Positions 356-21,172 of a stretch of 38,811 nucleotides of DNA are shown in pieces. The position numbers and the translations under genes were made by a program. Where the stretch lies: positions 1-38,811 of the forward strand of contig JAGXIO010000237.1 in NCBI GenBank assembly GCA_024635555.1, read 5' to 3'. Position 1 is the stretch's first letter. Each line of letters begins with the position of its first letter. The notes beneath the pieces were generated by a model that saw only the letters and a list, made by a program, of their open reading frames with translations, was not told the origin of the DNA and did no database searches. The DNA is from Saccharicrinis sp. Its GTDB lineage: Bacteria; Bacteroidota; Bacteroidia; Bacteroidales; Marinilabiliaceae.

Positions 356-386
356 CATCGAAATTTTAAAAAACTTTTTATCAAAC

Positions 387-1736: not shown

Positions 1737-1775
1737 TATGTTCAGTCAATTTGTAAATATTAAAACCATAGTAAA

Positions 1776-2954: not shown

Positions 2955-2966
2955 TAAATTATAACA

Positions 2967-3662: not shown

Positions 3663-3673
3663 ACGGTTAAAAA

Positions 3674-4330: not shown

Positions 4331-4355
4331 TCATTAACGGAAAAAACTGATCTAA

Positions 4356-4973: not shown

Positions 4974-6239
4974 ATGAATATGATATTTTTAGCAAGTCAG
5001 GCTACTGTGATAGCCACCAGCGTGATAGTATTTTTATTGGTTATACTATTATTGGTGTCCATATTATTGTATGTAAAGAAAAAACTTACACCGGCAGGAA
5101 CAGTTACGATCAATATTAACGACGGCGAAAAGGAGCTCGTTGTTGATCCGGGTCAAACATTATTAACAGCTTTAGGAAGTAATAAGATATTTCTTCCTTC
5201 CGCTTGTGGAGGTGGTGGTACTTGTGCCATGTGCCGTTGTCAGGTACACGATGGAGCAGGAAGTATTCTGCCTACCGAAACGGACTTTTTTAACCGTAAG
5301 GAGCAAGCCAACGATTGGCGTTTGGCCTGTCAGGTAAAAGTGAAGGAAGACCTGAAAATGGAAATACCCCACGAAATACTCGGTATTAAAAAATGGGAGT
5401 GTACGGTGGTTTCCAATAATAATGTGGCCACCTTTATAAAAGAATTTGTGGTGAGGTTGCCCGAGGGCGAAACCTTAGACTTTAAATCGGGGGGGTATAT
5501 CCAAATCGATGTTCCTAAAATTACGGTTGATTTCAAGGATATGGAAATTGGTGAAAAATTCCGTGACGAGTATGTAAAGTTTGGTATGTTTGACCTACAA
5601 ATGGTGAACCCCGAAGAAACATTCCGTGCCTATTCAATGGCCAATCACCCAGCTGAGGGTAATATTGTAATGCTAAATATACGTATTGCTACTCCACCTT
5701 TCGACAGGGTAAACGGTGGTTTTGCAAAGGTTAATCCCGGCATTTGCTCTTCGTATATATTCTCACGTAAGCCAGGCGATAAAGTTGTTATTTCAGGTCC
5801 TTATGGAGAGTTCTTTATCAAGGATACCGATAGAGAGATGATGTTTATTGGTGGTGGTGCAGGTATGGCGCCTATGCGTTCGCATATCTTCCACTTATTC
5901 CACACCTTAAAATCTGGCCGTAAGGTTAGTTTCTGGTACGGAGCACGTTCTAAGAAGGAGATTTTTTATCAAGACCAGTTTGAGGCCATCGAGAAGAAAT
6001 TTCCCAACTTTACCTTTACCATCGCTTTGAGTGAGCCACATGCCGATGATAACTGGGAAGGCAGCAAAGGGTTTATCCACCAAGTAATTCACGACGAATA
6101 CCTCAATAAGCATGAGGAGCCCGAGGATATAGAGTATTACCTCTGTGGTCCCCCAATGATGAACGATGCAGTTAATAAAATGCTTTATAATCTGGGCGTG
6201 CCGGATGAAATGATTGCATTCGACGATTTTGGATCGTAA
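4974..6239 (+). CDS. nqrF: Na+-translocating NADH:quinone reductase subunit F
   Basis: NqrF is the electron entry subunit: it oxidises NADH at FAD and passes electrons through a ferredoxin-type 2Fe-2S centre. The 421-residue protein has one N-terminal membrane helix (about 12-33), a ferredoxin domain with cysteine ligands Cys78, Cys84, Cys87 and Cys119 (C-x5-C-x2-C ... C), an FAD-binding block RAYSMAN at 218-224, a pyridine-nucleotide block with GGGAGMAPMRS, and the C-terminal CGPPMM motif followed by a normal C-terminus. ATG at 4974 directly follows the nqrE stop. It is the last gene of the operon and is followed by a strong terminator. Confidence 0.97.
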   Translation: MNMIFLASQATVIATSVIVFLLVILLLVSILLYVKKKLTPAGTVTININDGEKELVVDPGQTLLTALGSNKIFLPSACGGGGTCAMCRCQVHDGAGSILPTETDFFNRKEQANDWRLACQVKVKEDLKMEIPHEILGIKKWECTVVSNNNVATFIKEFVVRLPEGETLDFKSGGYIQIDVPKITVDFKDMEIGEKFRDEYVKFGMFDLQMVNPEETFRAYSMANHPAEGNIVMLNIRIATPPFDRVNGGFAKVNPGICSSYIFSRKPGDKVVISGPYGEFFIKDTDREMMFIGGGAGMAPMRSHIFHLFHTLKSGRKVSFWYGARSKKEIFYQDQFEAIEKKFPNFTFTIALSEPHADDNWEGSKGFIHQVIHDEYLNKHEEPEDIEYYLCGPPMMNDAVNKMLYNLGVPDEMIAFDDFGS

Positions 6240-7554: not shown

Positions 7555-10500
7555 ATGACAACAAAAAAGCTAATCCGAAATATATTTCTCATCGCAGTAG
7601 GTTTTGTGCTGGTGCTTGTAATATTGGCCGAAGTTTTCAAAAATGATATGGTTAAGCTTGCCCTTGAAAAAGGTGCCAAAACTTTTGATGTTCCAATCAC
7701 AGTAGGTGAGGTAGATTTTAGTTTGCTCTACCGCTTTCCGCTTGCAACCATAGAGTTCAACGATTTAGTAGCCTTTGGAAATGCGCTTGTTAAAAAGGAT
7801 GGTGTACATACCGATACCATAGCCAGTATCTCCAAGCTTTATGCATCTGTGGATATTAGGGAATTGATAAAAGGTAATATTCTGGTTCGTAAAATTGATA
7901 TCGAAAATGTAAAAGCGAATTATTTAGTTGATTCTTTAGGTCACAGTAACTTCGATTTTTTGTTGAAGGGGCAAGATGGCGATAGTCTTGTAGCCGTAGA
8001 AGATACCACCAAAGCTCAAGGTATATATACTTTGGATAAGCTTACCCTGAAAAATATTGAGTTAAAATATGTGGATGATTTTTTAAATGCATCGGCGCAA
8101 TTAAATATCCCTAAACTCATCATGAACGGTCAGGCACAATCCAGCGGATTTACTGCAGCCACACAAGGTGAAGTCATCGTGCAACAGTTGCGCTACGCCA
8201 ATTATAATATGGAATTATTAGCCAATAGTAGTGTCAACTTTGATGTTACGGCAAAAAATGATACCCTGCGTATTTCACAGTTAATGATAAAAACAGGTTC
8301 TGCAATCCTTAATCTGAATGGTAGTGCCATCTCCAAGGACAGCACACAAATTGATATTCAGTTCTCCGGTAATGAAATTGATATGGCCGAAAATATGTCT
8401 GTTCTGCCCCAAAATATGCTGGAAGAATATAAAGTTAGTCGTGTGGGAGGTCTGTTGAATATCAAGGGCAAAGCACAAGGTTATTTGACCAAAAATACGA
8501 TGCCTTTAATCGAGTTAAACCTGAACTTGATGGATGGCGCTCTTAAATACGACATCTATCCAGCGCTTAAAAACATAGGTCTGGATGCCGACTTCACCAA
8601 TGGGTATCCTCGTACCCTGTCATCTTCAGTTTTAAATATCAAAAAGTTGCACGTCCAAACAGATGTCAGCTCCGTAGATTTATCGGCAAGGATTCAAAAT
8701 TTAAATCAACCCCAATATGATGTTTCGGCCGTATTAAACACCGAATTAAGCGAGCTGTTGCCTTTTGTACAGGATTCAACCCTAAGGAAGATGAACGGAA
8801 AGGTAAAGGCAGATATTACTACCTCAGGTATATTGCCCGACTCGTTAACTGCCGACTTTGCCGATTACTTTTTGAGCAAAACTAAATTAAGTATCAGCCT
8901 TAATCAAGTGAACATCCAAATGGATTCATTACCTGCAATTAATGGTTTAGACGCTCATATGGCTTTTAACCCCGGCACCATTAAGCTGAGTGATATTAAT
9001 TTTGAAATTCCCGAGTACCATGTCGAACTTGCTCAGGGATATTTGCAAGGCAGGTACAAAGGCCAACTGAGCCAATATGAAAATCTATCGCTGCAAATAG
9101 ACAGCCTGTTGTTGGCCACGCCGTACTCGTACATTTCGACTTCGGGGTATGTGGAAGGATTGAAGAAGGTAAATTACAATTTGAATACCGCCGTAAATAT
9201 CAGTTTGTCCGAAGTAATACAATGGCTTCCCGATTCCATTGCCAATACTATGTCGGGAAGTTTGGCGGCAACTATGGCTTCAGCAGGCTCGTTTGATGCT
9301 GACTCGATAGCAGACCTTGCAATGCCCTTGCTGTTCAATAACAGTGCGTTTACTATTGCGATGAACGACATATACCTAAACATGCCCGATACCCTGATGA
9401 ACGTGAAAATGCTATCGGGCAATATGCGTTATAAAAACGATAGTGTTTGGGTGAACCAACTATCGGGTAACTACCTGGGGTTGGATTTTGCGGCTGATTC
9501 TACCACCGTATCAAATGTGTACAGCGCAGCCGTGCAAAATAAACACAAAGAAATGGAGGTGCAGGGTAACTTTGCCGTCGGCGATATGGATTATGCATGG
9601 ATAGAAAGCTTTTTGGTAGATACTGTTTTGGTTGAAAACGTGGAGCTAGATTCCAAGGTAGAACCTTACAAGATGAATTTTACCTACAAAATAAAAGGCA
9701 AAGCAAAGGCCAAGAGCTTTAAGTATGAGGATGTGATGATAGAAAATCTTGATTCTAAATTCCTAGCCAAAGTGGATGATGGCTATTATGTTGCCGATGG
9801 ACTTACTTGCAATGCCTTTGGTGGCAATGTGAGTGCTTCGGTAAAATACCAGATGTTCCCAAATTTTAGGGACGTGCTGCAATTTAAAACTGACATGAAA
9901 AATGTGGATATGCCACGTATGTTAAAGGAATTGGAGACCTATATCGATCAGGAGGATTTTACGGATAAAAACGTGCTGGGCAAGTTGACGGCACAAATGG
10001 ATGGAAAAATTATAATGAAGGATTATGCGCCCGTTTATGATTCTATGCTGTTAAAGGGAAATCTCACCTTGGTAAATGGCGCCCTCATTAATGTTAAGCC
10101 GGTGATGGATGTAGAAGATATTGCTTTTATAGGCTTAAAAAATATGAATAAGCTTTATTTTAGCACCATAGAAAGTCAATTGTTTTTATTTAAAAACAAA
10201 ATGTATTTTCCACGAACCAATATACGTAGCTCCTCGTTCGATGGTATGTTTTTTGGCATGTATAGTTTTGGCGAAGATTATGCGTACCATGTTAAAATGT
10301 ATTTGAATCAGGTTTTGTCGGGTAAAGATAGGTCCAGTTTAAAGAAAGAAGCCAAAGAAAATGGTTTCGATGAGGAAGTAGGTACGGATGGCCGCCGACC
10401 TATATATGTGGTGTCGAAAAGCGAAAAAGGAAAATCAAAAGCCGGGCTCGACAACCGAAAAGATAGATTGCGCATGGATGCCAAAGTTAACCTTCAGGAA

Positions 10501-10557
10501 CAAATGGTTAGTTTTAGGTTTGATCCACGACTGGTGATCTATAATACGGATGAATAA
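7555..10557 (+). CDS. AsmA-family protein
   Basis: This 1000-residue protein starts with one membrane helix (about 9-26, IFLIAVGFVLVLVILAEVF) followed by a long periplasmic beta-rich region. The pattern 'VDFSLLYRFPLATIEFNDL ... LVRKIDIENVKANYL ... FDFLL' is typical of AsmA-like proteins, which share the repeating beta-groove fold of bridge-like lipid transfer proteins. The C-terminal part (about 730-930, with NVDMPRMLKELETYIDQEDF and LLKGNLTLVNGALINVKPVMD) is the AsmA C-terminal region. Likely role: transport or assembly of phospholipid between inner and outer membranes, inferred from the family. A TATCTTTG -7-like box lies at 7516-7523. The DsbA-like gene begins only 3 bases after its stop, so the two are probably co-transcribed. 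Confidence 0.85.
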   Translation: MTTKKLIRNIFLIAVGFVLVLVILAEVFKNDMVKLALEKGAKTFDVPITVGEVDFSLLYRFPLATIEFNDLVAFGNALVKKDGVHTDTIASISKLYASVDIRELIKGNILVRKIDIENVKANYLVDSLGHSNFDFLLKGQDGDSLVAVEDTTKAQGIYTLDKLTLKNIELKYVDDFLNASAQLNIPKLIMNGQAQSSGFTAATQGEVIVQQLRYANYNMELLANSSVNFDVTAKNDTLRISQLMIKTGSAILNLNGSAISKDSTQIDIQFSGNEIDMAENMSVLPQNMLEEYKVSRVGGLLNIKGKAQGYLTKNTMPLIELNLNLMDGALKYDIYPALKNIGLDADFTNGYPRTLSSSVLNIKKLHVQTDVSSVDLSARIQNLNQPQYDVSAVLNTELSELLPFVQDSTLRKMNGKVKADITTSGILPDSLTADFADYFLSKTKLSISLNQVNIQMDSLPAINGLDAHMAFNPGTIKLSDINFEIPEYHVELAQGYLQGRYKGQLSQYENLSLQIDSLLLATPYSYISTSGYVEGLKKVNYNLNTAVNISLSEVIQWLPDSIANTMSGSLAATMASAGSFDADSIADLAMPLLFNNSAFTIAMNDIYLNMPDTLMNVKMLSGNMRYKNDSVWVNQLSGNYLGLDFAADSTTVSNVYSAAVQNKHKEMEVQGNFAVGDMDYAWIESFLVDTVLVENVELDSKVEPYKMNFTYKIKGKAKAKSFKYEDVMIENLDSKFLAKVDDGYYVADGLTCNAFGGNVSASVKYQMFPNFRDVLQFKTDMKNVDMPRMLKELETYIDQEDFTDKNVLGKLTAQMDGKIIMKDYAPVYDSMLLKGNLTLVNGALINVKPVMDVEDIAFIGLKNMNKLYFSTIESQLFLFKNKMYFPRTNIRSSSFDGMFFGMYSFGEDYAYHVKMYLNQVLSGKDRSSLKKEAKENGFDEEVGTDGRRPIYVVSKSEKGKSKAGLDNRKDRLRMDAKVNLQEQMVSFRFDPRLVIYNTDE

Positions 10558-10560
10558 GCG

Positions 10561-11193
10561 ATGATATTTAAAGAAAGATTTATGGTCAGGATAACTTATT
10601 GCTGCCTCGTTCTTGTGTTTGTGATTGGATGTGGAACTGGCACAAACCAGGATGTGAAAACCATTGACGGTAATGTGGTTCAAAATTCGGAGGATGTTGT
10701 ATTTGGTAACGACTCGGCGGAAAATACTATTTTTCTCTATGCCAGCTACAATTGCCAATATTGCAGGTACTTGTTTTCGAGGACCTTTTCGGAGTTAAAA
10801 CAACATTATTTAGACAAAGGCTTGGTAAAAGTGGTAGTTAAATTTGTAGATTTTGGCGAAGACCCGCAAACTAGATATGCACTTAAGGCGGCCAGTTGTA
10901 TTTACCGCTACGGGACTTATCAAAAGTTTCATGAGCTGTTGCTGGCTGACCCAGCTATTGTGGCAAGTGAAAAGTTTAGGGTGTTGGTTGATGATATTAT
11001 GGCCGAAAATCCCGATATTGCAGAGTGTTTGTTGAGCAAGACGGATACTGATTTTTTGAAAGAAAACCTTGAAGAGTTCAGGCAAAAACAGTTTACGGGA
11101 ACGCCCACCATGGTAATCAACAGCCATGTTTACACTGGTTTTGTGTCCTACGAAAAAATTGATGCAATACTAAAAGAGGAATTTGAATTATGA
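10561..11193 (+). CDS. DsbA-like thioredoxin-fold lipoprotein
   Basis: The 210-residue product has a signal sequence ending in a lipobox-like VIGC (lipid Cys24) and then a Thioredoxin_4/DsbA-like domain. The opening VFGNDSAENTIFLYASYNCQYC gives the active-site pair Cys65-Gln-Tyr-Cys68, and GTPTM at about 180-184 supplies the cis-proline loop (Pro182). A shorter start, ATG at 10582 (MVRITYCCL...), would make a more normal signal peptide and is preceded by an A/G-rich stretch, so it is a real alternative. The enzyme probably oxidises or isomerises disulfides in the periplasm while anchored to a membrane. It follows the AsmA-like gene by 3 bases and precedes a cysteine-rich lipoprotein, a plausible substrate. 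Confidence 0.82.
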   Translation: MIFKERFMVRITYCCLVLVFVIGCGTGTNQDVKTIDGNVVQNSEDVVFGNDSAENTIFLYASYNCQYCRYLFSRTFSELKQHYLDKGLVKVVVKFVDFGEDPQTRYALKAASCIYRYGTYQKFHELLLADPAIVASEKFRVLVDDIMAENPDIAECLLSKTDTDFLKENLEEFRQKQFTGTPTMVINSHVYTGFVSYEKIDAILKEEFEL

Positions 11194-11265
11194 CATACTG
11201 CGAATGGCAGTTTTAGCAAACAAGTTATCTTTTAGTCTTTTTTATAAATCTCTTATCTAAATAAT

Positions 11266-11625
11266 ATGAAAACAAAACTTTTTTTTATCATGATGCTAGC
11301 TATGTTAGCTTTTGTAGGTTGTACTGAAGAAGAATCGGATGAATTTTGTTCGAACCCTGAAGCTGCTTGTCCTGATCTTACCGCCATTAACGCAAGTGCT
11401 TGCTGTACTTCTGCGAGTTGCTATTGGACCTATCTGGGAACGGATTATCCATGCAAGGGAACGGATTGTGGATCGGTGAGGACGGTTATTATTAGCGATG
11501 CCTGCGTTGCTGGTGTCAATCTAAAATCATGGGATGGCGATTTAGCCGCTTTGGATGCACAAATGAAAGCTGTAACGGATAGGCTACTTGCCGAAGCCCG
11601 CGCTTCTTGTGCGGATTGCAAATAG
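11266..11625 (+). CDS. Cysteine-rich small lipoprotein, unknown function
   Basis: The 119-residue protein has a clear lipoprotein signal (MKTKLFFIMMLAMLAFVGC, lipid Cys19). The mature part carries ten further cysteines at 28, 35, 46, 47, 52, 63, 68, 80, 115 and 118, many in pairs (CC at 46-47, CADC at 115-118). The spacing suggests a disulfide-knotted core from 28 to 80 and a helical tail from about 87 to 119. I do not recognise a family. It lies 72 bases after the DsbA-like lipoprotein on the same strand, which makes it a candidate client of that thiol enzyme. It is a real gene on the evidence of its signal peptide and conserved-looking cysteine pattern. Confidence 0.7.
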   Translation: MKTKLFFIMMLAMLAFVGCTEEESDEFCSNPEAACPDLTAINASACCTSASCYWTYLGTDYPCKGTDCGSVRTVIISDACVAGVNLKSWDGDLAALDAQMKAVTDRLLAEARASCADCK

Positions 11626-11638
11626 AAATATATTAGAC

Positions 11639-11663
11639 CTGTCGGCGTCCTTAGACCCGACAG
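11639..11663. terminator. Hairpin between the convergent lipoprotein and LRR genes
   Basis: CTGTCGG (11639-11645) pairs with CCGACAG (11657-11663) over an 11-base loop. It lies 14 bases after the lipoprotein stop and 50 bases past the 3' end of the opposing gene. There is no clear T-run, so a terminator role is inferred from position; it may instead be a dispersed repeat. Confidence 0.4.
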
Positions 11664-11713
11664 CGTTAACTGACGTTAATATCCACCCCTGAGTAGATAG
11701 ACTCTGGAGTTGC

Positions 11714-12325
11714 TCAAATCAGCAGTTTCTTAATGTAACCTGTCACATCGGGTACGGTACTTATTTTATTCTCCGTAAGGTTCATTTCTTCAAGTTGGCC
11801 TTCCCTTAGCATATGGAAAGGAAACGAACGGAGCTTGTTATTCTTGAGGTAAATATTTTTTATCGACTTTGAGTTTAACAAATGCTCGCAGCCCTCGGCT
11901 ACGTTATTATCGCTAAAATCAATGAGCCGAAGTGCAGGACATTGTGCCACTACAGGTGGTATTTTTTTTAATCGATTATCCCCCAAATATATTTTTTCGA
12001 GTGCGGTTAACTGTGCAATAGAATCAGGCAGCGCATTTATTTCATTGTGGCGTAAATCTAAATGTTTCAATTTTTTTAAGGCAGAAATATCTTCGGGCAA
12101 GCACGTTAAATCGTTACCCTGAATATCTAAATACTCCAGATTTTCGAGCATAAAGAGTGCCTGTGGCCATTGCCCCTTTAAACGGTAATTTGCTATGCTG
12201 AGGTGCGTAACCTCACCTAAATCGTTGATTTGATAACCTTTTAAAAACCAAACAATTTTTTCAATTTGGTCTAAGCTCATGGGTAATTGGTAGCTTAGCT
12301 GTTTAATGATAATTGAATCTGCCAT
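11714..12325 (-). CDS. Leucine-rich repeat protein
   Basis: The 203-residue protein contains about five or six leucine-rich repeats of the bacterial 23-residue kind, for example LENLEYLDIQGNDLTCLP, LKKLKHLDLRHNEINALP and LTALEKIYLGDNRLKKIP. There is no signal peptide or membrane helix, so it is probably cytoplasmic and binds a protein partner. It is the last gene of the minus-strand run and starts 12 bases after the ATP-cone/nuclease gene, so the two are very likely co-transcribed and may act together. The partner is unknown. Confidence 0.85.
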   Translation of the reverse strand: MADSIIIKQLSYQLPMSLDQIEKIVWFLKGYQINDLGEVTHLSIANYRLKGQWPQALFMLENLEYLDIQGNDLTCLPEDISALKKLKHLDLRHNEINALPDSIAQLTALEKIYLGDNRLKKIPPVVAQCPALRLIDFSDNNVAEGCEHLLNSKSIKNIYLKNNKLRSFPFHMLREGQLEEMNLTENKISTVPDVTGYIKKLLI

Positions 12326-12337
12326 TGCTATCTTAGC

Positions 12338-13189
12338 TTAATTACAAATCTCGTTTATTTCTTTCCTTAAAACATCGTATTTAGTTTTGCTAAAATCAAG
12401 TTCCTGTAGCAAATCCATATTTTTGGATAATTGAGAGCATGTTACAATGCCTTGATTTAACAAGTGCTGTTGTTCAATGGGGTTAAGGCTTTCCAAAATA
12501 GTTATCGGATATATTTTTAAATCTTCAATCATATTTTTTAAGCCCTGACCAGCGGGATAGTCCCAAGCCAAAAGATTTAATCCACTACATTTTCCGTATC
12601 GGATGGAATCTGGTGAGAAACTAGTGTTTGTGACTACCCAGCCCGTAAAGGAATATCCACGATACTCTTCCAATTCTTTGCGTTTGCGTATGATGTCATC
12701 CACACGCGAACGCACATACAAAGGCACCTGAATACTTACATATTTACCTTGGTCTTTATGGTATTTACATTCCATTAAATGCTGTGCAGAATCGAGGGTG
12801 GCAATCACATCCATTTCGTGCGTTATGCAATGCCCATCTACAACTACACCAACCTCGGTAACAAAGCCCTTTAGTTTAAACAATTCCCCTATTAATGATT
12901 CAAATGGGTAACCTGTAGGGCCTAGTGCAAATATGGCCTGTTTCAATTTGTAACGTATTGCAGGTGATGCGGTATCGCGATGTAAAATTGCAAAAGCACG
13001 CCTATAAATTTCTTTGGTAGATGCACCCGGATAAATCCAATCCTGAATATCATTAACGATTTTCAAAACTGTTTCTGTTTTTGCGCCTGCATTATACAAG
13101 GAGCGCTCTAATTTTTCGGGTATAAATAATTGCTCATCACCTGAGGCTTTTTTGATTAGAATATTTTTTTTCGAAATGTTATTGTCCAT
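12338..13189 (-). CDS. ATP-cone domain fused to an Mrr-like PD-(D/E)xK nuclease
   Basis: The 283-residue protein begins with an ATP-cone (about 9-90): ILIKKASGDEQLFIPEKLERSL and later DTASPAIRYKLKQAIFALGPTG, the nucleotide-binding module known from ribonucleotide reductase regulators. It is followed by a restriction-endonuclease-like domain (about 95-210) with GYPFESLIGELF, then Asp127 (HEMDVIA) and Glu140-Cys-Lys142 (HLMECKYHK), a full D...ExK catalytic set of the Mrr type. The C-terminal tail from about 225 looks like a helix-hairpin-helix region (LNPIEQQHLLNQGIVTCSQL). This predicts a nuclease whose activity is gated by ATP/dATP. It sits 24 bases after a histidine kinase gene and 12 before an LRR gene. 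Confidence 0.8.
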   Translation of the reverse strand: MDNNISKKNILIKKASGDEQLFIPEKLERSLYNAGAKTETVLKIVNDIQDWIYPGASTKEIYRRAFAILHRDTASPAIRYKLKQAIFALGPTGYPFESLIGELFKLKGFVTEVGVVVDGHCITHEMDVIATLDSAQHLMECKYHKDQGKYVSIQVPLYVRSRVDDIIRKRKELEEYRGYSFTGWVVTNTSFSPDSIRYGKCSGLNLLAWDYPAGQGLKNMIEDLKIYPITILESLNPIEQQHLLNQGIVTCSQLSKNMDLLQELDFSKTKYDVLRKEINEICN

Positions 13190-13213
13190 ATGTTATTTTG
13201 CAATAGGTTTCAA

Positions 13214-14374
13214 TTATATGATTTGTGTTAGCGGCAAATTAATAATAAAAACACTCCCTTTTCCTATTTCACTTTTAACGGTTATTGTACCTTTGTGCAT
13301 ATCAACAAACTCTTTGATAAGTAACAAGCCAAATCCGGTTCCGTGTTCGCCATTCGTTCCTTTTTGTGATTTAGTTACGCCGATTTTAAACAATGATTCC
13401 ATGGTTTGTTCATTCATTCCTAATCCGTTGTCGGATATTGTAATCTGCACTGTTTTCCCATCTTTTTTTGCATAAACGCGTACTTCACCATTTTCGGGTG
13501 TGAATTTTATGGCATTACTTAATAAGTTACGGATTATGGTTTTTATCATCTCACGGTCTATTTCTACCTCAATTATTTGAGGAATATCTATGATTATGTT
13601 AATTTTTTTTGCCTTTGCCGAAGGATTTACTAGGGTGAATGTTTCATAAACCAAATGATATAAATTTTCAACTTTTGGATTAAATGCAGCTTTATCTCTC
13701 TGAACTACTGACCATTCCATTAAGCTATTTAACAAGTTGAATGTTTGTTCTGAAGAATCGTTAATAATACCAGCAAATTCTTTAATTGTTTTTTTATCGT
13801 AGTTGTCAATGTCTGTCAGCAATAATTCAGAAAAGCCTAATAAGGTATTGAATGGATTTTTCAAATCATGTCCCAGTATGGAAATAAAGCGATCCTTGGT
13901 GGCATTAAGTTTTTCTAAAGCATCATTGGCTCTGTTTAATTGATTCATGGTTTTATTAAGCACATTTTTTTCTTTTATTAATTCACGCTGAAGATTGTTT
14001 AAATCACGGTTCAATTTATGAACAATTTTATTCTGATCAATTAGTTGATTGGCAATTACTCCGCCAATAATTAGCAACTTGTTATCTTTTCTGAATATTT
14101 GAGCATAAATGGATGTGTTAATTGAAGAATAAGTGCCAATAGTTAGATAACCATTAAAAATAAGTGCTTGCGAATTGTCTAATAATAACAGGGTTTCAAA
14201 GGTTGGGTTAAGCAAGTTATCACATGCCTTACCTGTAAAAAGCGAAGTCATGGCTTTATTTGCAAAAATCAGTTCTTTATTTATCGAAAATAAAGCAATA
14301 GATAGTACATTACTATCTATTAAGGAACTATTAAGTTCCGTCTCCCATCCCGATAAAATTATTTTCTTCAACAT
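13214..14374 (-). CDS. PAS-domain histidine kinase
   Basis: A 386-residue cytoplasmic kinase by the ATG at 14374; an in-frame TTG at 14380 is less likely. A PAS-like sensor domain spans about 20-105 (LSIALFSINKELIFANKAMTS), followed by a coiled coil (about 115-160), a HisKA domain with the phospho-acceptor His169 in FISILGHDLKNPFN, and a HATPase_c domain with N box LLSNAIKF, G1 DNGLGM and G2 GTGFGL. There is no transmembrane segment and no receiver domain, so the phosphate must pass to a separate regulator, for instance the CheY-like protein at 18265-18714. It follows the B12-binding gene and the frameshifted small ORF on the same strand. Confidence 0.92.
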   Translation of the reverse strand: MLKKIILSGWETELNSSLIDSNVLSIALFSINKELIFANKAMTSLFTGKACDNLLNPTFETLLLLDNSQALIFNGYLTIGTYSSINTSIYAQIFRKDNKLLIIGGVIANQLIDQNKIVHKLNRDLNNLQRELIKEKNVLNKTMNQLNRANDALEKLNATKDRFISILGHDLKNPFNTLLGFSELLLTDIDNYDKKTIKEFAGIINDSSEQTFNLLNSLMEWSVVQRDKAAFNPKVENLYHLVYETFTLVNPSAKAKKINIIIDIPQIIEVEIDREMIKTIIRNLLSNAIKFTPENGEVRVYAKKDGKTVQITISDNGLGMNEQTMESLFKIGVTKSQKGTNGEHGTGFGLLLIKEFVDMHKGTITVKSEIGKGSVFIINLPLTQII

Positions 14375-14407
14375 TATCAATACATTGAATTTGGTGATTC
14401 AAGATCC

Positions 14408-14618
14408 TCATTTGAAACTTTTGCAAAAATTGGAATGATTATCCGTCATCATATTTATATTATCTTCACCAATAAGACTTTCAATGTCAGTGCGTTTCAA
14501 CATTAAAGTATTTATTTTTGAAACGAGTTGTTCTGATTTCTGATTAAACTCATTCGCTGCTTTTTTCACCCACTTGTTTTAATAGTCGTGCAGTTGCCAA
14601 AAGACTTAACTTATCCAT
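14408..14618 (-). pseudogene. Small ORF overlapping the B12 photosensor gene, frameshifted
   Basis: ATG at 14618-14616 overlaps the B12-protein stop by 8 bases (ATGGATAA), an arrangement of coupled translation. The first frame reads MDKLSLLATARLLKQ and stops after 22 codons. The +1 frame continues seamlessly as KAANEFNQKSEQLVSKINTL and onward to a TGA at 14410-14408. The total span of 211 bases is 70 codons plus one base, so removing one A from the A4 (near 14580) or A6 (near 14563) run restores one 69-residue, mainly helical, charged protein. The likely explanation is a one-base insertion in a homopolymer, either a true mutation or a sequencing error. No family is recognised. Confidence 0.6.
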
Positions 14619-15264
14619 TACAATCAATATTTTTTATAAACAATTCAATACTCTGCATATCTGGCAGGTAAGTTACATTATTATATTTCAATAGTACATC
14701 TTTCCCACCATGAAGAAATGCTTGTCCCCCAACTAAAATAGAAAGATTGGGAAACTCTTTTCTAATTTTCCGTATCAAATTTTCAAGTATTGGTAAGTTA
14801 AAATAAATACTTAAAGATAGAGCAAGAACATCAGGGTTAACTGTTTTTATTAAATGAATAAGCTCTTTTGCTGGGGTATTGGCTCCAAAAAAATAAGCGT
14901 TCCACCCATGCAGTTCAAAAGCATCAGTTATCATTTTTATTCCTATCTGATGAAATTCATTTTCAACACAAGCTCCTATCACTTTTTTGCCATTCTGTTC
15001 AGATGATATTATTTGGCCATAAAACTCATTTAAAATGGCTTCAACAATTGAAGTTGCTAAATGCTCTGTTGCTACACTAATTTTATTCGTTTCCCAAAGC
15101 ACTCCTATCTCATAAAGTGCTCTTTTTATAATATTTTCATACAGTTCTTGAAGAGTAATGTCTTTCGAATTCTTATGAATAAATTCAGAACACTTTGAAT
15201 GGTCGCCCGAAATGAGCAATTCACAAAATTCCTTATGTTTATTCTGTTCTTTAAAAATAGTCAT
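14611..15264 (-). CDS. Stand-alone B12-binding protein with CarH-type photoreceptor motif
   Basis: The 217-residue protein is a helical B12 cap domain (about 1-90) plus a Rossmann-like cobalamin-binding domain (about 93-215). Trp57 and Glu67-His68 form the W(x9)EH signature of light-sensing adenosylcobalamin proteins of the CarH/LitR family. Glu103-Phe-His105-x2-Gly108 gives the E/DxHxxG lower-ligand motif (His105), and ILVGG at 176-180 the GG motif. The MerR helix-turn-helix found in CarH is absent, so it cannot bind DNA by itself and probably signals to a protein, likely one of the adjacent kinases. Start ATG at 15264; the stop overlaps the following small ORF by 8 bases. Alternative: a B12 protein without photochemistry. 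Confidence 0.88.
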   Translation of the reverse strand: MTIFKEQNKHKEFCELLISGDHSKCSEFIHKNSKDITLQELYENIIKRALYEIGVLWETNKISVATEHLATSIVEAILNEFYGQIISSEQNGKKVIGACVENEFHQIGIKMITDAFELHGWNAYFFGANTPAKELIHLIKTVNPDVLALSLSIYFNLPILENLIRKIRKEFPNLSILVGGQAFLHGGKDVLLKYNNVTYLPDMQSIELFIKNIDCNG

Positions 15265-15349: not shown

Positions 15350-18199
15350 CTATATGGATTTGCTTGTTTTATTAATAGAATCAATAGAGGGAATTTCAGA
15401 TAATACACTGGGGGATATTTTGTTATACGGAATCGTAAAGTGAAATATCGAACCTTTGCTTAATTCGGAGCTTACCCATATTTTACCGCCAAGTAATTCG
15501 ACATAAGCTTTTGATATGGACAGACCTAGGCCTGAGCCCCCATACAAGCGTGATGTAGTTGTTTCGACTTGGCCAAAACGTTGAAATATTCTGTCGTGCA
15601 TATCGGATGGTATGCCTATGCCGGTATCTTCAACATAAAAATTGAGATTGCTGCCTTTTAAATGATATCCAAAACGGATGAAACCCTGTTCCGTGAATTT
15701 AAGTGAATTGCTTAGTAAATTTGATAAAATCTCTATTAATTTTGTTTCATCTGTTTTAACAAGTGCTTCATTATCAGGCAAAGTAGTTTTTAGACTAAGA
15801 GAAATGTTTTGTTTTTCTGCTTTTAAAGTAAACTGTTCGTTTAACAGCCTAAGGATAGAATTCAGGTTAGTTTCTTTTTCAACAATTCTTGTTTGCCCAG
15901 CCTCAATAGTAGCTACATTTACTATATCCGTAATAATGGAAAGCAATTGGTTACTGCTTTGTAAAATTGTTTCAGTAAATTGTTTTATGTTTTCGGAAGG
16001 TAATTCAGGGGTGTTAAGTAATTCAGAAAAGCCTACAATAGCATTCAATGGTGTCCTTATCTCGTGTGATACGTTATGCAGAAAGGCCGTTTTTAAGCGA
16101 TCGCTTTCTTCGGCTTTTTCCTTAGCTCTTCGGAGTTCTTCTTCCCCCTGCTTGCGGTCGGTAATATCTTGGGCAGCTCCCCAAAGACCAATTATTTTAC
16201 CATTTGAATCAGTAATTGCTTCACCCTTTACCCATATCCAACCATTGCTGCCGTCGTTTCTAACTGATCTCAACTCTCGTTCGTATGGAATACCTGTTTC
16301 TATTATTTTTGCAACTGAAGCAGATAATAATTCCCAACTTTCAGGCGTAAATATTCTTTGATGTTCGGTATAAGTAGGCGCTGGAAGTTTAGGGTCGAAA
16401 CCATACATTTTGTATAACTCTTCTGTCCATACAACTTCATTGGTTGTCAAATCCATATGCCAACTTCCTATGCGAGTTATTTCCTGTGCTTTTTTTAATT
16501 CTCTTTCGCTTCGAAGCAATAATTTTTCATTTGCTTTGCGTTTGGTAATATCATGTAGAAAAACAAAAAACAATTTGTTATCTGGCATATAGTTTATACT
16601 AACTTCAAAATCTAAACTATTTCCATTTTTGCACCGATGTTTTGTTTCAAACCTATCTGTTCCTTGCTTAATAATTCGTTGCAATCGTTTTTCAATGTTC
16701 TCTTTTGTATCAATTAGTTCAACATCGCTTACCGACATGGTTAATAATTCATTGCGACTATAGCCAGATAATTTGCAATATGAATTATTCACTTCAATAA
16801 AGCGACCTTTTTGATCCACAATCCAGAATCCCTCGCTAGTCGTATGTAAAATAACGCTTTTTTGGTTTTCGCTGTTTTTTAATTTCTCTAATGCAGCGTT
16901 TTGAATTGTTATATCCTGAAAAACACAATGGGTTTGTTTAAAAGATCCGTCAGGGTGGTAGGAAGACATGCCATTCAACGAAATATGAATATATGATCCA
17001 TCTTTTTTTTGCAGCATAAATGGGACATCCGTTACTGAACCACACGTTTTAAGTAAAGGGAAATTTTTTACAAAAATAGCTTTAGCATTGGGGTGTAAAA
17101 AGCTACCATACCATTTGCCAATAACCTCATCAAGGGTATAGCCCAGTAATCTTAGCCAGGCAGGATTTACATCCATAATTATTCCTTCCGAATTTAATGA
17201 TTGATAAGGAAGTGGCGCATTATCATATAATGATTTGTATCTTTCTTTAGTAAATATCAACTCTTGATCCTTTTGAATCGATTCGAGTGCAAAGGAGATA
17301 TCTTCTGCAACTTCAACCAGTAAATCTATTTCTTGTTTATCGAAAAAATTAGTTTCGGTTGAACAAATGCTGAAAATTCCAATTATTTCTTTTTTGGCCT
17401 TAATAGGTAAGGAAATGATAGATCTATAATCTCTTTTAAGCGCTTCGTTGCGCCAAGGTTCGAATAATGGGTCATTCAATACATCATTAAAAACGGAGTG
17501 TTGTTTTTCTTTATATGCTTTTCCCACAGGCTCTTTTCCGGTAAGGGAATTCCCAGCTATTGGAATTTCAAAATTTGCAAGATAATTAGCTTCATGACCT
17601 GCCCAGCAAAAAGGTTTTATTGATTCTGACTCATAATCAACCAAGCCAATCCAAGCCATCCGGAAACCACCAAAATTTATTGCAATATCACAAGCCTCAC
17701 GAAAAAGTTTTTCACGGTCATTAGTTCTCACAATCAACTGATTTATCTGGCTTATTACCGCATAAACACGGTTTATTTTTACTAATTCCTTTTGAGCTTT
17801 TTCTTTTTCTAAGCGAATTTGTTTTGATGCTATTACCGTGTGAATTGTTTTAGGTAACCTATTTATATGACTTGCTGTTTTGATTACATAATCTGAGGCT
17901 CCTCGTTTCATTGCTTCAACAGCAACCTCCTCGGAGCCCGTGCCTGTAACTAAAATAACAGGCGTATTGGGTGATACTTTTTTTACAATTTCAAGCACCT
18001 GTAATCCTTCAAATCCTAAAATATTAAAATCGGACAAAACCAGATCATATACATTTTTGTGAATTAACTCCTCAAATTCATGTTGCGATTTAGCTTCTGT
18101 CAGGATAAAACCACCATGCTCTTTTTCCAAAGAATCACGCACTAAAGCCCTGTCTAATGGGTTATCGTCAATATATAAGATGTGAATATGATTGGCCAT
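15350..18199 (-). CDS. Hybrid sensor kinase: REC-GAF-PAS(x3)-HisKA-HATPase
   Basis: The 949-residue soluble protein starts with a receiver domain (1-120) that has Asp11/Asp12, phospho-Asp57 (LVLSDFN) and Lys107. A GAF domain follows (about 145-310), then three PAS domains (about 318-440, 442-555 and 565-685, the last a PAS_3 type ending in GAAQDIT). His712 lies in FLHNVSHEIRTPLNAI (HisKA), and the HATPase_c has LLSNSLKF, DTGIGI and GSGLGL. The receiver at the N-terminus suggests that this kinase is itself under phosphorelay input. It lies 65 bases after the CheY-like gene and 85 before the B12 gene, all on the minus strand. Confidence 0.93.
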   Translation of the reverse strand: MANHIHILYIDDNPLDRALVRDSLEKEHGGFILTEAKSQHEFEELIHKNVYDLVLSDFNILGFEGLQVLEIVKKVSPNTPVILVTGTGSEEVAVEAMKRGASDYVIKTASHINRLPKTIHTVIASKQIRLEKEKAQKELVKINRVYAVISQINQLIVRTNDREKLFREACDIAINFGGFRMAWIGLVDYESESIKPFCWAGHEANYLANFEIPIAGNSLTGKEPVGKAYKEKQHSVFNDVLNDPLFEPWRNEALKRDYRSIISLPIKAKKEIIGIFSICSTETNFFDKQEIDLLVEVAEDISFALESIQKDQELIFTKERYKSLYDNAPLPYQSLNSEGIIMDVNPAWLRLLGYTLDEVIGKWYGSFLHPNAKAIFVKNFPLLKTCGSVTDVPFMLQKKDGSYIHISLNGMSSYHPDGSFKQTHCVFQDITIQNAALEKLKNSENQKSVILHTTSEGFWIVDQKGRFIEVNNSYCKLSGYSRNELLTMSVSDVELIDTKENIEKRLQRIIKQGTDRFETKHRCKNGNSLDFEVSINYMPDNKLFFVFLHDITKRKANEKLLLRSERELKKAQEITRIGSWHMDLTTNEVVWTEELYKMYGFDPKLPAPTYTEHQRIFTPESWELLSASVAKIIETGIPYERELRSVRNDGSNGWIWVKGEAITDSNGKIIGLWGAAQDITDRKQGEEELRRAKEKAEESDRLKTAFLHNVSHEIRTPLNAIVGFSELLNTPELPSENIKQFTETILQSSNQLLSIITDIVNVATIEAGQTRIVEKETNLNSILRLLNEQFTLKAEKQNISLSLKTTLPDNEALVKTDETKLIEILSNLLSNSLKFTEQGFIRFGYHLKGSNLNFYVEDTGIGIPSDMHDRIFQRFGQVETTTSRLYGGSGLGLSISKAYVELLGGKIWVSSELSKGSIFHFTIPYNKISPSVLSEIPSIDSINKTSKSI

Positions 18200-18244
18200 T
18201 ATTGTTATTTTTTTTGTTTGCTACTTTAAGTTCTCAATTTTCAG

Positions 18245-18264
18245 ACCGACTGCTAACTGCTAAA
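18245..18264. repeat. Two-unit heptanucleotide repeat at the response-regulator stop codon
   Basis: Two copies of ACTGCTA lie side by side at about 18249-18262, directly past the stop codon of the CheY-like gene at 18265. It is short, but the period of seven and its position match the larger heptamer tracts elsewhere in the window. Confidence 0.35.
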
Positions 18265-18714
18265 TCAGTTCCCATTAATGGGAGGTTCAATATTTAAAGT
18301 AATCCAATAATCCATAACTTTTTTTATCACTTCCAAAAAACCATCAAAAGAAACAGGTTTTACCAAATAACTATTGGCTCCACAATCATAACTCAAAGCC
18401 CGGTCGCCTTCTTCTTTTGATGATGTTAATATAATTACTGGTATTCGTTTAATTTCATCGGTGTTTTTGGTTTTTCTAAGCACTTCAAATCCATCAATAC
18501 CGGGCATTTTTAGGTCTAAAAGAACGATGCTTGGCAGGGGATAGGTTTTGCGATTGGCAAATTCTCCTTCACCCAAAAGATATTGCAGTGCTTCTTCTCC
18601 GTTATGCGCAACCTGAATTTTGTTTGTAAGTCGTGCTTCACGAAATGCATCGAGGGTGAGTGCCACATCCATTTTATTATCCTCGACCAATAATATTAAT
18701 GCTTTCTTTTCCAT
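18265..18714 (-). CDS. CheY-like single-domain response regulator (Rcp1 type)
   Basis: A 149-residue receiver domain only, from the ATG at 18714 (MEKKALILLVEDN); an upstream TTG at 18720 adds two residues and is not preferred. Acidic residues Glu11/Asp12, phospho-acceptor Asp67 (LLDLKMPG), Thr97 and Lys119 are present. The long insertion GEGEFANRKTYPLPS before the phospho-Asp is characteristic of Rcp1-type regulators that serve phytochrome-like kinases. It has no output domain, so it relays phosphate or works by protein contact. It lies between two hybrid or PAS kinases (31 and 65 bases away) and is their natural partner. Confidence 0.94.
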   Translation of the reverse strand: MEKKALILLVEDNKMDVALTLDAFREARLTNKIQVAHNGEEALQYLLGEGEFANRKTYPLPSIVLLDLKMPGIDGFEVLRKTKNTDEIKRIPVIILTSSKEEGDRALSYDCGANSYLVKPVSFDGFLEVIKKVMDYWITLNIEPPINGN

Positions 18715-18745
18715 ACACAAAGATTGTATGTATGTATAAATACGG

Positions 18746-21172
18746 TTAAAAATACTTCAAAATTTTTGGAATTACAACCGAAAAAGTACTCCCTTTATTC
18801 AGTTCCGATTCAACTAAAATTTCCCCGCCTAAAGACGCAACTGCCTTTTTAACAATAGATAATCCGATTCCGGTTCCCGGATATTCTTCACTAGAATGCA
18901 AGCGTTGAAAAATATTAAAAATTTTTTCGTGGTGTTCTTTCGGAATTCCTTGTCCATTATCACTTATTTTAATTGTACTTGTTTCTTCATTTTCATCCAC
19001 TGATATTACTATTTCCGGATCTACTCCTTTTCGATGATATTTGATTCCATTTGAAATTAAATTGGACAAAATCTGAATAAGTAAAGATCTGTCGGCATAG
19101 ATAGTTAGCATTTTATCCGGAGCAACGATTTTGGCATTGAAAACTAAAATATCTTGATTAAGGTTTTGTAAAACCTGTTCCAGAATATCATTGAGCTCAA
19201 TGGTTTCTTTATCAACTGATTTTTTTGAAAGACGCGAAAAACGCAGAAGATCCTCAATGAGATTTGCCATGTTTTTACTTGCCTCAAGAACATATCCGAA
19301 ATACGCTTTTCCTTCTTCATTTAAACGGGGCGCATGTCTTCTCGAAATAATTTCAGAAAACCCCATAATAGATCGTAAAGGAGCTTTAAGGTCGTGCGAA
19401 ACAGAGTAAATAAAAGATTGCAGTTCTTTATTGGTGTTTTCTAACTCTTGTGTTCTTTCAGCAACTCTAAGTTCAAGTTCTTTATTGAGTTCCTGAATTT
19501 CCAATTCAGCTTTTTTTCGGTCGGTGATATCAATAATATGAGTAATAAAATAAAGCGAGTTCCCATTTGCATCCTTTAATAGGGAGGAGGATACTTCTGT
19601 CCAAATAACCTCCCCATTTTTACAGATGTATCTTTTATCAAAACGGAAAACATCTGATTGCTTATCGATTACTTTTGCAACCAATGCATTGCTTTGGGCA
19701 ATATCATCGGGGTGTGTAATTTTCCGAAATGTCGTATTAAGCAGTTCATCGTTTGAATATCCAAGCATTTGACAAAGCCTGGAATTTACTTTTAAAAATT
19801 TTCCATCGGTAGATGTTAAACACATTCCTACAGCCGAATTTTCGAAAACAGTACGAAATTGCAATTCGCTTTTTGCTATTTTCTCCTGCATCATTTTCTG
19901 TTTGGTTATGTCGGTAAATGCCGTTGCAAACATTTCTTTTTTTGGAGAAAATACGGAAATGCTAAAGTGTTTTTTTAAAGGAGGGAAGTACGTTTCAAAT
20001 TCAGTGGGTATCATTGTATCAGCCACCTTCGAATAAATATCTAAATAGGGAGCAGGGCTTGTTCCATAAAATTCACTTGCAATTTGGTTTCTCGCCTTTT
20101 CAAGCTGAATGCCGGTGTGCTTTTCAAATGCCGGATTCAATTCCAGAATTCGATAATCGCTTGCCTTATTTGTTTGGTCATATATCACTTCATGCAAGGC
20201 GACTCCTTCGCTCATTGAAGCGAAAAGAGAGGCATATTTATTTCCACTCTCCTTTAACTCATCCTCTACTTTCCTGATTCTTGTAATATCGAAGGCTGTG
20301 CCTCTTGTGCCAATTATATTTCCACTTCCGTCGCGAACAAATTTGGCGTTAAAGACCAGTTTAATTTCTTTTCCATTTTTCCCTATGTGAACTGTTTCCA
20401 ATCCTTTAACTGTACTGCCTTGCAATAGCCGTTCAAATTCTTTCGAATCGCGATTGGCCCAATATTTGGTCTGAAAATCAGAAAACTTCTTACCTAGCAT
20501 TTCACCTATTTTATAACCAAACACTTCTTCCCAAGCCGGATTTAAATAGGTATATTTTCCTTCTGCATCTACTTGCCAAATTAAATCCTGCGCCGTTTCA
20601 ACCAAATCGTGGTATAAAGCTTGCGATTCTGCTAAGGCAATGTTCGATTCCGATTGTTTCAAATTTCGTAACCCAACACTCGAAATCACCTGAATTAACT
20701 CCTTTAAAAATAGAGTCAGATCATTCAATCGTTCTTCTGTAATTACAGGAACATTGTCTAATGCCTTTAAATATTCAATTTCATCAAATCCATATTTTTT
20801 GGCTTGTGCTTTAAAAAAGTTAACATCGGGTGTTTCAAAGAAAAATTGGCCTGTAAAAAAGTTACCATAATGCGTTCCATCGATAATAATTGGGAAAGCA
20901 TAATCGTACATTCCGTTCATGCATTTATAACCTACTGCGGGATTGGCTTCGTGAATATGATCAACAATATAGGAATCGCTAATCGTACATTTTTTGCATG
21001 ATTTAGGGTTTACTCTGTGAAATTTGGTACAGATATCCTGCCATCCCGAAGCGGTGAGAATATTACCTTCGTTATCAAGTATTGCAGTTGTAAATGAATA
21101 GACCTCATTCATCATATCCTGAAGAGATTGAAACTGCTGAATGTCTATTAAATCCTGGAGTTTATATTTCAT
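18746..21172 (-). CDS. PocR-domain multi-PAS histidine kinase
   Basis: The 808-residue soluble kinase opens with a PocR sensory domain (about 5-170), with conserved cysteines Cys48, Cys59, Cys62 and Cys84 (DICTKF, SCKKC, GYKCMNG), the layout of PocR ligand-binding domains. Three PAS domains follow (about 185-300, 310-425 and 435-553). A coiled coil (555-588) leads to the HisKA box, His593 in IYSVSHDLKAPLRSI, and a phytochrome-like HATPase_c (LISNGIKYH, DNGQGI, GTGIGL). PocR domains are proposed to bind small hydrocarbon-type ligands, possibly with iron, so this kinase may sense a metabolite. It is the first gene of the minus-strand signalling run. Confidence 0.92.
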   Translation of the reverse strand: MKYKLQDLIDIQQFQSLQDMMNEVYSFTTAILDNEGNILTASGWQDICTKFHRVNPKSCKKCTISDSYIVDHIHEANPAVGYKCMNGMYDYAFPIIIDGTHYGNFFTGQFFFETPDVNFFKAQAKKYGFDEIEYLKALDNVPVITEERLNDLTLFLKELIQVISSVGLRNLKQSESNIALAESQALYHDLVETAQDLIWQVDAEGKYTYLNPAWEEVFGYKIGEMLGKKFSDFQTKYWANRDSKEFERLLQGSTVKGLETVHIGKNGKEIKLVFNAKFVRDGSGNIIGTRGTAFDITRIRKVEDELKESGNKYASLFASMSEGVALHEVIYDQTNKASDYRILELNPAFEKHTGIQLEKARNQIASEFYGTSPAPYLDIYSKVADTMIPTEFETYFPPLKKHFSISVFSPKKEMFATAFTDITKQKMMQEKIAKSELQFRTVFENSAVGMCLTSTDGKFLKVNSRLCQMLGYSNDELLNTTFRKITHPDDIAQSNALVAKVIDKQSDVFRFDKRYICKNGEVIWTEVSSSLLKDANGNSLYFITHIIDITDRKKAELEIQELNKELELRVAERTQELENTNKELQSFIYSVSHDLKAPLRSIMGFSEIISRRHAPRLNEEGKAYFGYVLEASKNMANLIEDLLRFSRLSKKSVDKETIELNDILEQVLQNLNQDILVFNAKIVAPDKMLTIYADRSLLIQILSNLISNGIKYHRKGVDPEIVISVDENEETSTIKISDNGQGIPKEHHEKIFNIFQRLHSSEEYPGTGIGLSIVKKAVASLGGEILVESELNKGSTFSVVIPKILKYF

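What the first reader, a model, noticed from the sequence alone, without database searches (positions are those of the whole stretch)
14611..15264. DNA-binding-free B12 photosensor with the full W(x9)EH signature beside histidine kinases
Trp57 and Glu67-His68 are exactly nine residues apart, as in CarH/LitR light-sensing adenosylcobalamin regulators, and the lower ligand motif E-x-His105-x2-Gly is present. Yet there is no MerR domain. Known outputs of such photoreceptors are direct DNA binding, or antirepression in AerR-type proteins. A stand-alone module placed between a REC-GAF-PAS hybrid kinase and a PAS kinase suggests a phosphorelay controlled by light through B12, which I do not know to be described in this group.
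Basis: partly seen in the sequence, partly recalled or inferred. Interest (0 to 1): 0.75.

Follow-up and report, generated by a model that had tools for sequence, protein, structure and literature searches.

The report
Split B12 light-sensor kinase cassette
A vitamin-B12 protein with the signature of known light sensors belongs to a conserved gene trio with a globin-like protein and a signalling kinase, so these bacteria probably read light (or B12 itself) through a split receptor, although in this genome the middle gene is broken.

Summary
In detail: 14611-15264 (minus strand) encodes a 217-aa stand-alone B12-binding protein with W57-x9-E67H68 and E103-x-H105-x2-G108 and no MerR domain. The interpretation needs correcting. 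Its nearest kin are the B12 domains of photocobilin-type globin-B12 proteins, not MerR-type CarH. It belongs to a gene trio: B12 protein, a ~150-aa protein unnamed in Pfam/NCBIfam with a phycobilisome-globin-like model, and a soluble histidine kinase with a PAS-like N-domain. In the window's family 12 of 71 genomes have the B12 gene and all 12 have the same kinase downstream; the globin gene is intact in 9, absent in 2, broken in the window. Of 80 loci found through the globin, 76 have the B12 gene and 74 a kinase catalytic domain nearby. In one lineage clearly (a second weakly) the N-domain carries a diguanylate cyclase instead. So the downstream kinase is the conserved partner; the upstream REC-GAF-PAS kinase is not in the closest relative. 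Likely mechanism: AdoCbl photolysis changes the B12(+globin) assembly, which regulates the kinase. Biliverdin is doubtful (PF01126 heme oxygenase in 2 of 49 cassette genomes, 0 of 71 family genomes). New variant of a known kind; light response is inferred, not shown.

The parts
14611..15264 (-). Stand-alone B12-binding protein, 217 aa: helical cap (B12-binding_2, residues 12-79) with W57-x9-E67H68; Rossmann part (B12-binding, 94-183) with E103-x-H105-x2-G108, S150xS152 and G179G180.
   Evidence: conservation.
14377..14618 (-). Remnant of the middle (photoglobin-like) gene: early frameshift and an internal deletion of 221 bp relative to the intact copy in G005. The deleted part holds, among others, the counterparts of W86, W101 and W130.
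   Evidence: (match at 14363-14569, E 1.4e-17). Single assembled contig; reads not available, so an assembly error is not excluded.
13214..14374 (-). Soluble histidine kinase, 386 aa from the ATG at 14374 (the ORF list starts at a TTG at 14380): PAS-like N-domain plus long helix (about 1-160), HisKA (H171-D172) and HATPase_c. The conserved partner of the B12 gene.
   Evidence: H171 invariant in 12 of 12; no 19-residue stretch above Kyte-Doolittle 1.15.
15350..18199 (-). Upstream REC-GAF-PAS(x3)-HisKA-HATPase protein, 949 aa. Possible relay member, not a conserved part of the unit.
   Evidence: absent beside the B12 gene in G005; related HisKA-HATPase-REC upstream in G065.
18265..18720 (-). Single-domain response regulator. 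Possible phosphate acceptor (inference only).

Best explanation
The protein is the cobalamin subunit of a split photocobilin-type receptor that works through a histidine kinase. Inferred steps: in the dark AdoCbl holds the B12 protein as a dimer through the W57/E67/H68 pocket; light breaks the Co-C bond, the pocket helix moves and the assembly changes; the B12 protein, in most relatives together with the separate globin docked on the corrin face, touches the PAS-like N-domain of the kinase encoded next door and changes its activity. In the window's genome the globin gene is broken, so the B12 protein would act on the kinase alone, as seems to be the case in two relatives without the globin gene. 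Shown by sequence: gene trio, motif conservation, kinship, broken middle gene. Inferred: AdoCbl binding, light response, protein contacts, sign and target of the output.
For: W(x9)EH in 73 of 74 and lower-ligand His in 73 of 74 cassette B12 proteins. Closest solved structure is the photocobilin SasPcob, 4.6e-19; in a tree cassette B12 domains lie with the globin-B12 fusions, apart from MerR-type and corrinoid domains (SH-like support 0.836 for that split, 1.000 for the MerR stem). Kinase orthologue downstream in 12 of 12; B12 gene within 3.5 kb of the globin in 76 of 80, kinase catalytic domain in 74 of 80, cassette-type N-domain in 70 of 80 (66 at 60 bits or more). Two family genomes (G014, G065) have B12 gene and kinase without the globin. 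Same N-domain joined to PAS-GGDEF in L140 (89 bits), weakly to GGDEF in L143 (25 bits over 93-144). Distance correlation B12-globin 0.80, B12-N-domain 0.79, B12-kinase catalytic part 0.62, over 58 loci. Photocobilins act in trans on a cyclase (PMC10979010). The genome has a PduO-type cobalamin adenosyltransferase.
Against: No spectroscopic or genetic evidence. Several bearers belong, by general knowledge, to anaerobic, often dark habitats (Desulfobulbus, Desulfotignum). Canonical heme oxygenase is mostly missing (0 of 71, 2 of 49), so the biliverdin half of the photocobilin model is doubtful. SignatureFinder's GxxH motif is not met (N102; G in 9 of 74 cassette proteins). The globin match rests on fold (Foldseek E not below 0.013) and on a profile match of probability 45.7%. 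dN/dS of the B12 gene (0.25) and kinase (0.24) against G005 is at the high end of the six genes compared (0.10-0.25), so relaxed constraint in the window is not excluded. The trio is rare in the class draw (globin in 1 of 395, the window's own remnant; B12 in 5 of 395).
Confidence: 0.58

Rival explanations
1. Cobalamin sensor rather than light sensor: the B12 subunit reports AdoCbl supply (or cobalt redox state) to the kinase, and photolysis is a side reaction.
For: Bearers include Desulfobacterota and other lineages of habitats that are often dark (taxa; habitat is general knowledge); heme oxygenase mostly missing; the genome has its own AdoCbl chemistry (PF01923; MetH- and mutase-like proteins L002, L003).
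Against: The adenosyl-pocket residues W/E/H, which in SasPcob undergo the light-driven change (PMC10979010), are kept in 73 of 74, while five other B12-binding places of the genome lack them.
Confidence: 0.25
2. In the window the cassette is decaying: with the globin gene broken, B12 protein and kinase no longer form a working receptor.
For: Frameshift plus 221-bp deletion in the middle gene; dN/dS of B12 gene and kinase at the high end of six genes; only 2 of 9 same-genus genomes have the B12 orthologue.
Against: B12 gene and kinase are full length with all motif residues; G014 and G065 keep both without the globin; dN/dS is still well below 1.
Confidence: 0.14
3. Corrinoid methyl-carrier protein of a methyltransferase system, not a sensor.
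For: Weak NCBIfam similarity to MtbC (6.6e-10) and MtgC (3.5e-8), far below their cut-offs.
Against: CarH is the better NCBIfam match (1.4e-14, also far below cut-off); the genome's corrinoid-type protein L001 lacks W(x9)EH; no methyltransferase domain among the 17 window proteins scanned with Pfam; tree position; recurring kinase partner.
Confidence: 0.03

Closest known systems
Photocobilins (SasPcob, AbDPcob; PDB 8J2W, 8J2X, 8J2Y; PMC10979010)
   Same: B12 domain with W, EH and lower His, best solved match, tree neighbours; globin-like partner with the corrin-contacting Trp apparently kept (W86 in 65 of 66); output by protein contacts, including a diguanylate cyclase.
   Different: Globin and B12 domain are separate genes and the globin is dispensable; the biliverdin-binding Asp270 falls on an invariant Asn60 (one off from Asp59) and SasPcob His137 aligns with Glu134; the usual output is a PAS-like histidine kinase.
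BBAG-2 globins with B12-binding proteins and pre-2 bilin reductases (PMC10151467, passages seen)
   Same: A stand-alone globin encoded beside a B12-binding protein in a stereotyped three-gene cluster.
   Different: There the third gene is a bilin reductase and heme oxygenase is present; here the third gene is a kinase and PF01126 is mostly missing. BBAG-2 has an RGMC motif; in the 66 globins here no column near the pocket is Cys in more than 10. BBAG-2 sequences were not fetched for direct comparison.
CarH/LitR
   Same: W(x9)EH, lower-ligand His.
   Different: No MerR domain; separate clade. The same genome has a separate MerR-type protein with W(x9)EH, L006.
AerR/PpaA (stand-alone B12 co-regulators; abstract beginnings in the listing)
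   Same: B12-binding protein without DNA-binding domain that acts through a partner protein.
   Different: Partner is the transcription factor CrtJ/PpsR, not a kinase; no AerR sequence was compared here.

Membership tests
CarH/LitR | MerR-type DNA-binding domain fused to the B12 domain | tested here: not met
   Pfam: only B12-binding and B12-binding_2; NCBIfam CarH model 54 of 400 bits.
CarH/LitR | W(x9)EH and ExHxxG | tested here: met
   conserved in 73 of 74 relatives each.
CarH/LitR | AdoCbl-dependent, light-reversible oligomer | not testable with these tools
   Needs purified protein.
Photocobilin | Light-type B12 domain (W, EH, E/DxH) | tested here: met
   tree neighbour of globin-B12 fusions, support 0.836.
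Photocobilin | Globin domain in the same chain | tested here: not met
   217 aa, no further domain; the globin-like protein is a separate gene in relatives and broken in the window.
Photocobilin | Partner has the photoglobin fold | tested here: inconclusive
   Model pLDDT 91.8; phycobilisome-type top matches at prob 1.00, TM about 0.6, but E 0.013 or worse; profile match score 31.2 with 0 of 150 shuffles reaching it, hhalign probability 45.7%. No sequence-level match to PDB.
Photocobilin | Biliverdin binding | not testable with these tools
   Indirect signs are against: Asp270 counterpart is Asn60 by ungapped profile alignment; PF01126 in 0 of 71 and 2 of 49 genomes. But genomes with fused globins or other W(x9)EH relatives mostly lack PF01126 too (1 of 18).
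SignatureFinder light-responsive CBD signature (PMC11796333) | GxxW, EH, GxxH, GxxxP | tested here: not met
   GxxW (G54, W57), EH and GxxxP (G127, P131) met; GxxH not (N102). G at this place in 9 of 74 cassette, 9 of 15 fusion and 4 of 14 MerR-type proteins, so it is not kept in this genome's relatives of CarH either.
Histidine kinase (output) | HisKA with phospho-accepting His and HATPase_c | tested here: met
   13214-14374: HisKA 8.1e-9, HATPase_c 4e-25; H171 invariant in 12 of 12.
Corrinoid methyltransferase protein (MtbC/MtgC/MtaC) | Model cut-off reached, methyltransferase partner | tested here: not met
   38.9 of 350 and 33.2 of 370 bits; no methyltransferase among 17 window proteins scanned.
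AerR/PpaA | CrtJ/PpsR partner and AerR sequence type | not tested
   No AerR sequence was fetched.

The most novel reading that the evidence does not exclude
A widespread, so far unnamed class of split B12 photoreceptor kinases: a cobalamin subunit, a globin subunit that has given up its bilin and works as a protein modulator on the corrin face, and a dedicated PAS-like input domain that can carry a histidine kinase or a diguanylate cyclase. The globin is dispensable, lost or broken in 3 of 12 family genomes including the window.
Probability: 0.42. Interest if true: 0.8.

Novelty: new variant of a known kind. Interest (0 to 1): 0.6.

Why it matters
If true, it is a modular B12 light input for two-component signalling in bacteria not usually regarded as light-responsive (sediment Bacteroidota, Desulfobacterota). 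It is easy to test, because the subunits are separate genes and nature has already made versions without the globin and with a cyclase output. It also gives a context to a conserved ~150-aa family for which searches of Pfam, NCBIfam and PHROGs gave no credible match.

Tried and rejected
(1) Upstream REC-GAF-PAS kinase as dedicated partner: rejected as a conserved feature because G005 has a CotH-like gene there; kept as possible relay member (G065 has a related kinase upstream).

(2) Kinase-B12 fusion in G056 (Geofilum rubicundum; L054, L081) as fusion evidence: not used. In the ATPase region the reading turns into a Pro/Ala/Ser/Cys-rich stretch, which looks like a frameshift or sequencing error; this is my reading by eye.

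(3) Naming the middle protein by sequence alone: failed; fold and profile comparison were needed.

(4) Heme oxygenase as a marker: not discriminating. 0 of 71 family genomes, 2 of 49 cassette genomes (G427 = L137, G428 = L140), 1 of 18 genomes with fused globins or other W(x9)EH relatives (G714, about 2 kb from its B12 gene). Only PF01126 was searched; other biliverdin routes were not.

(5) CarH-type bis-His light state: not pursued. The residue after W57 is Glu in 71 of 74, and SasPcob's light state is water/hydroxide ligated; that CarH uses a His next to its Trp is recalled.

(6) Rotated profiles are not a useful control (the aligned stretch stays whole in most of them and scores 31); column shuffles, reversal and unrelated profiles are.

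A4 used 66 of the 73 complete globins (left out: L075, L081, L085, L088, L090, L110, L133). The fusion profile used 8 of 15 loci; the script read only the + strand (4 missed) and 3 had too short an N-part. The tree used 20 of 58 cassette B12 domains and holds the window twice, also as L004. Distance correlations used 58 of 80 loci and are raised by shared ancestry. The figure '79 of 80 with a kinase' counted the N-domain alone; recounted with the catalytic domain it is 74 of 80, and 3 of the 6 misses (L073, L088, L112) end at the end of the held sequence inside the N-domain.

Full report
OBSERVATION. The gene is on the minus strand, 15264..14611, 217 aa. W57, E67-H68, E103 and H105 are as stated. 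Pfam gives B12-binding_2 (12-79) and B12-binding (94-183) and no DNA-binding domain. The closest solved proteins are the photocobilin SasPcob (8j2w/8j2x, 4.6e-19), then 8jbs (1.8e-14) and AbPcob 8j2y (2.5e-13); CarH structures follow at about 5e-7. In the same genome 7 places match B12-binding; only this one and a MerR-type protein (L006) have W(x9)EH.

THE MISSING GENE. Orthologues were found in 12 of 71 family genomes at E<=1e-20. Nine of the 12 carry an intact ~150-aa gene between the B12 gene and a histidine kinase. In the window this gene is broken: a remnant at 14377-14618 with an early frameshift and a 221-bp internal deletion relative to G005. In G065 and G014 no globin was found and the B12 gene is followed directly by the kinase. 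All 12 have an orthologue of the 13214-14374 kinase downstream.

WHAT THE MIDDLE PROTEIN IS. Pfam, NCBIfam, PHROGs and sequence searches of the PDB give nothing credible. An AlphaFold model (mean pLDDT 91.8, all helical) matches phycobilisome chains best: of the 50 rows shown, 47 are phycobilisome/phycobiliprotein entries, 2 smURFP and 1 the DosC globin, at prob 1.00 and TM about 0.6, but E only 0.013-0.091, and none of 731 matches reaches 0.001. A profile of 66 relatives matches the N-terminal domain of globin-B12 fusions (hhalign score 31.2, probability 45.7%, pairwise E 2e-4); the best of 150 column shuffles gave 24.8, the reversed profile 14.6, unrelated profiles 12.6-16.4. One of those fusions, L016, hits Pfam Phycobilisome at 1.1e-8. 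I read the protein as a stand-alone photoglobin-like subunit. Transferring residue numbers through L016 by hand, the SasPcob Trp296 that hydrogen-bonds the corrin is W86 (65 of 66), while the biliverdin-binding Asp270 falls on N60 (66 of 66), one place after D59 (65 of 66); a shift of one residue cannot be excluded. On the B12 side SasPcob His137, which pairs with biliverdin, aligns with E134 (E 51, D 17 of 74; among 15 fusion or similar proteins H 5, S 4). PF01126 heme oxygenase was found in 0 of 71 family genomes and 2 of 49 cassette genomes; the control rings in 3 of 14 known genomes. So the docking surface seems kept, but biliverdin is doubtful. Caveat: 18 genomes with fused globins or other W(x9)EH relatives also mostly lack PF01126 (1 of 18), so its absence is weak evidence.

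HOW GENERAL. A scan of named genomes with the globin profile gave 138 relatives, 80 returned: by record title mostly Bacteroidota, also Desulfobacterota, Spirochaetaceae, Planctomycetota, Competibacteraceae, Magnetococcales, SAR324 and Oligosphaera. Within 3.5 kb of the globin on the same strand, 76 of 80 have the B12 gene, 74 a kinase catalytic domain, 71 both, and 70 the cassette-type N-domain (66 at 60 bits or more). The strict order B12-globin-cassette kinase is found in 59 of 80; the rest are variants (kinase between B12 and globin, globin first) or are cut by the end of the held sequence. W(x9)EH is in 73 of 74 B12 proteins (the miss is a cut gene) and the lower His in 73 of 74 (L139, the same contig as family genome G022, has Pro). 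Distances between 58 loci correlate best for B12-globin (0.80) and B12-N-domain (0.79), less for B12-kinase catalytic part (0.62). In L140 the N-domain (89 bits) is joined to PAS-GGDEF, and in L143 a weak partial match (25 bits, residues 93-144) precedes GGDEF. The N-domain model (pLDDT 82.9, pTM 0.61) matches PAS domains best, E 0.003-0.03 and TM below 0.5. This points to the N-domain as receiver of the signal. In a tree of B12 domains the cassette proteins lie with the globin-B12 fusions, away from MerR-type and corrinoid domains (support 0.836; midpoint rooting). The only neighbour group present in more than 5 of 80 loci is further kinase-like ORFs (44 loci; 62 of its 72 ORFs have the catalytic domain). 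In the class at large the trio is rare: globin in 1 of 395 genomes (the window's remnant) at 1e-10, B12 orthologue in 5 of 395 at 1e-20.

MECHANISM. In SasPcob AdoCbl photolysis moves the Glu/His helix, breaks the dimer and leaves a water/hydroxide-ligated cobalamin, and stand-alone photocobilin domains change diguanylate cyclase activity in trans, with a sign that depended on biliverdin for SasPcob. By analogy, photolysis in the window's protein would alter its dimer and its contact with the kinase's PAS-like domain. It would have to act without the globin, as in G065 and G014. dN/dS against G005 is 0.25 (B12) and 0.24 (kinase), against 0.10-0.23 for four flanking genes: compatible with constraint, but not excluding some relaxation, and unable to separate the times before and after the globin broke. 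Whether the trigger is light or AdoCbl supply cannot be decided from sequence.

UPSTREAM KINASES. The PocR-PAS kinase, response regulator and REC-GAF-PAS kinase at 15350-21172 lie on the same strand. In G005 a CotH-like gene and a 259-aa ORF stand in their place, before a 606-aa gene that has the same length and position as the window's AMP-binding gene at 21853-23673 (these two were not aligned). They may join a relay but are not part of the conserved unit.

PRIOR WORK. Closest papers: photocobilins (PMC10979010: abstract, introduction, first results paragraphs and sections 7, 8, 9 read); SignatureFinder (PMC11796333: abstract, sections 8 and 12, term passages); BBAG-2 clusters (PMC10151467: passages only); CarH review (PMC8156234: passages only). 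The term 'kinase' (SignatureFinder) and 'histidine kinase' (BBAG paper; photocobilin paper, listing) do not occur in the three main texts. Among the papers listed by searches none shows, by title or abstract start, a B12-globin-kinase cassette; several of these listings were capped (for example 15 of 4,695 and 20 of 2,211), and subscription papers are mostly not held. The photoglobin paper of Schneider et al. 2022 (PMC8717448) is not held; its title speaks of prokaryotic signal transduction systems, so it may already note such neighbourhoods. Hence 'new variant of a known kind'.

Noticed in passing
window 15350-21172: A block of PocR-PAS kinase, response regulator and REC-GAF-PAS kinase sits upstream of the B12 gene where the near relative G005 has a CotH-like gene and a 259-aa ORF; it looks like a cargo swap at one site.
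   Followed up: partly
window 11714-15264 against L053: dS to G005 is low for the B12 gene (0.15), LRR gene (0.16) and kinase (0.29) but 0.76-0.95 for three other flanking genes, as if part of this region was exchanged recently between the two species.
   Followed up: partly
L006 (G000:C70:4091-7232), ORF 931-1830: The same genome has a separate MerR-type, CarH/LitR-like protein with W(x9)EH and ELHEIG, so the organism may have two B12 light inputs.
   Followed up: no
L063 (G022) and L139 (same contig by length), B12 gene: The lower-ligand His is Pro although W(x9)EH is kept.
   Followed up: no
L098, L099, L100, L103, L106, L107, L108, L117, L120, L121, L127, L130, L131, L141: A subgroup has a cassette kinase of about 405-440 aa with a different H-box context (AHE(I/L)NNP), in most of these loci followed by a further kinase ORF on the same strand, which suggests a fixed kinase pair.
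   Followed up: no
L166 (G714:C1:2476058-2476612) and L162: One genome with a 555-aa W(x9)EH B12 protein encodes a heme oxygenase about 2 kb away, a possible biliverdin-using relative.
   Followed up: no
L054 (G056), 9973-11955: An apparent kinase-B12 fusion of 660 aa that is probably a frameshift artefact in a draft genome (by eye).
   Followed up: partly
window 345-6239: NqrA at 345-1736 and an Fer2/FAD/NAD reductase (NqrF-like) at 4974-6239, with ORFs between them on the same strand: probably the Nqr sodium-pump operon; ordinary.
   Followed up: no
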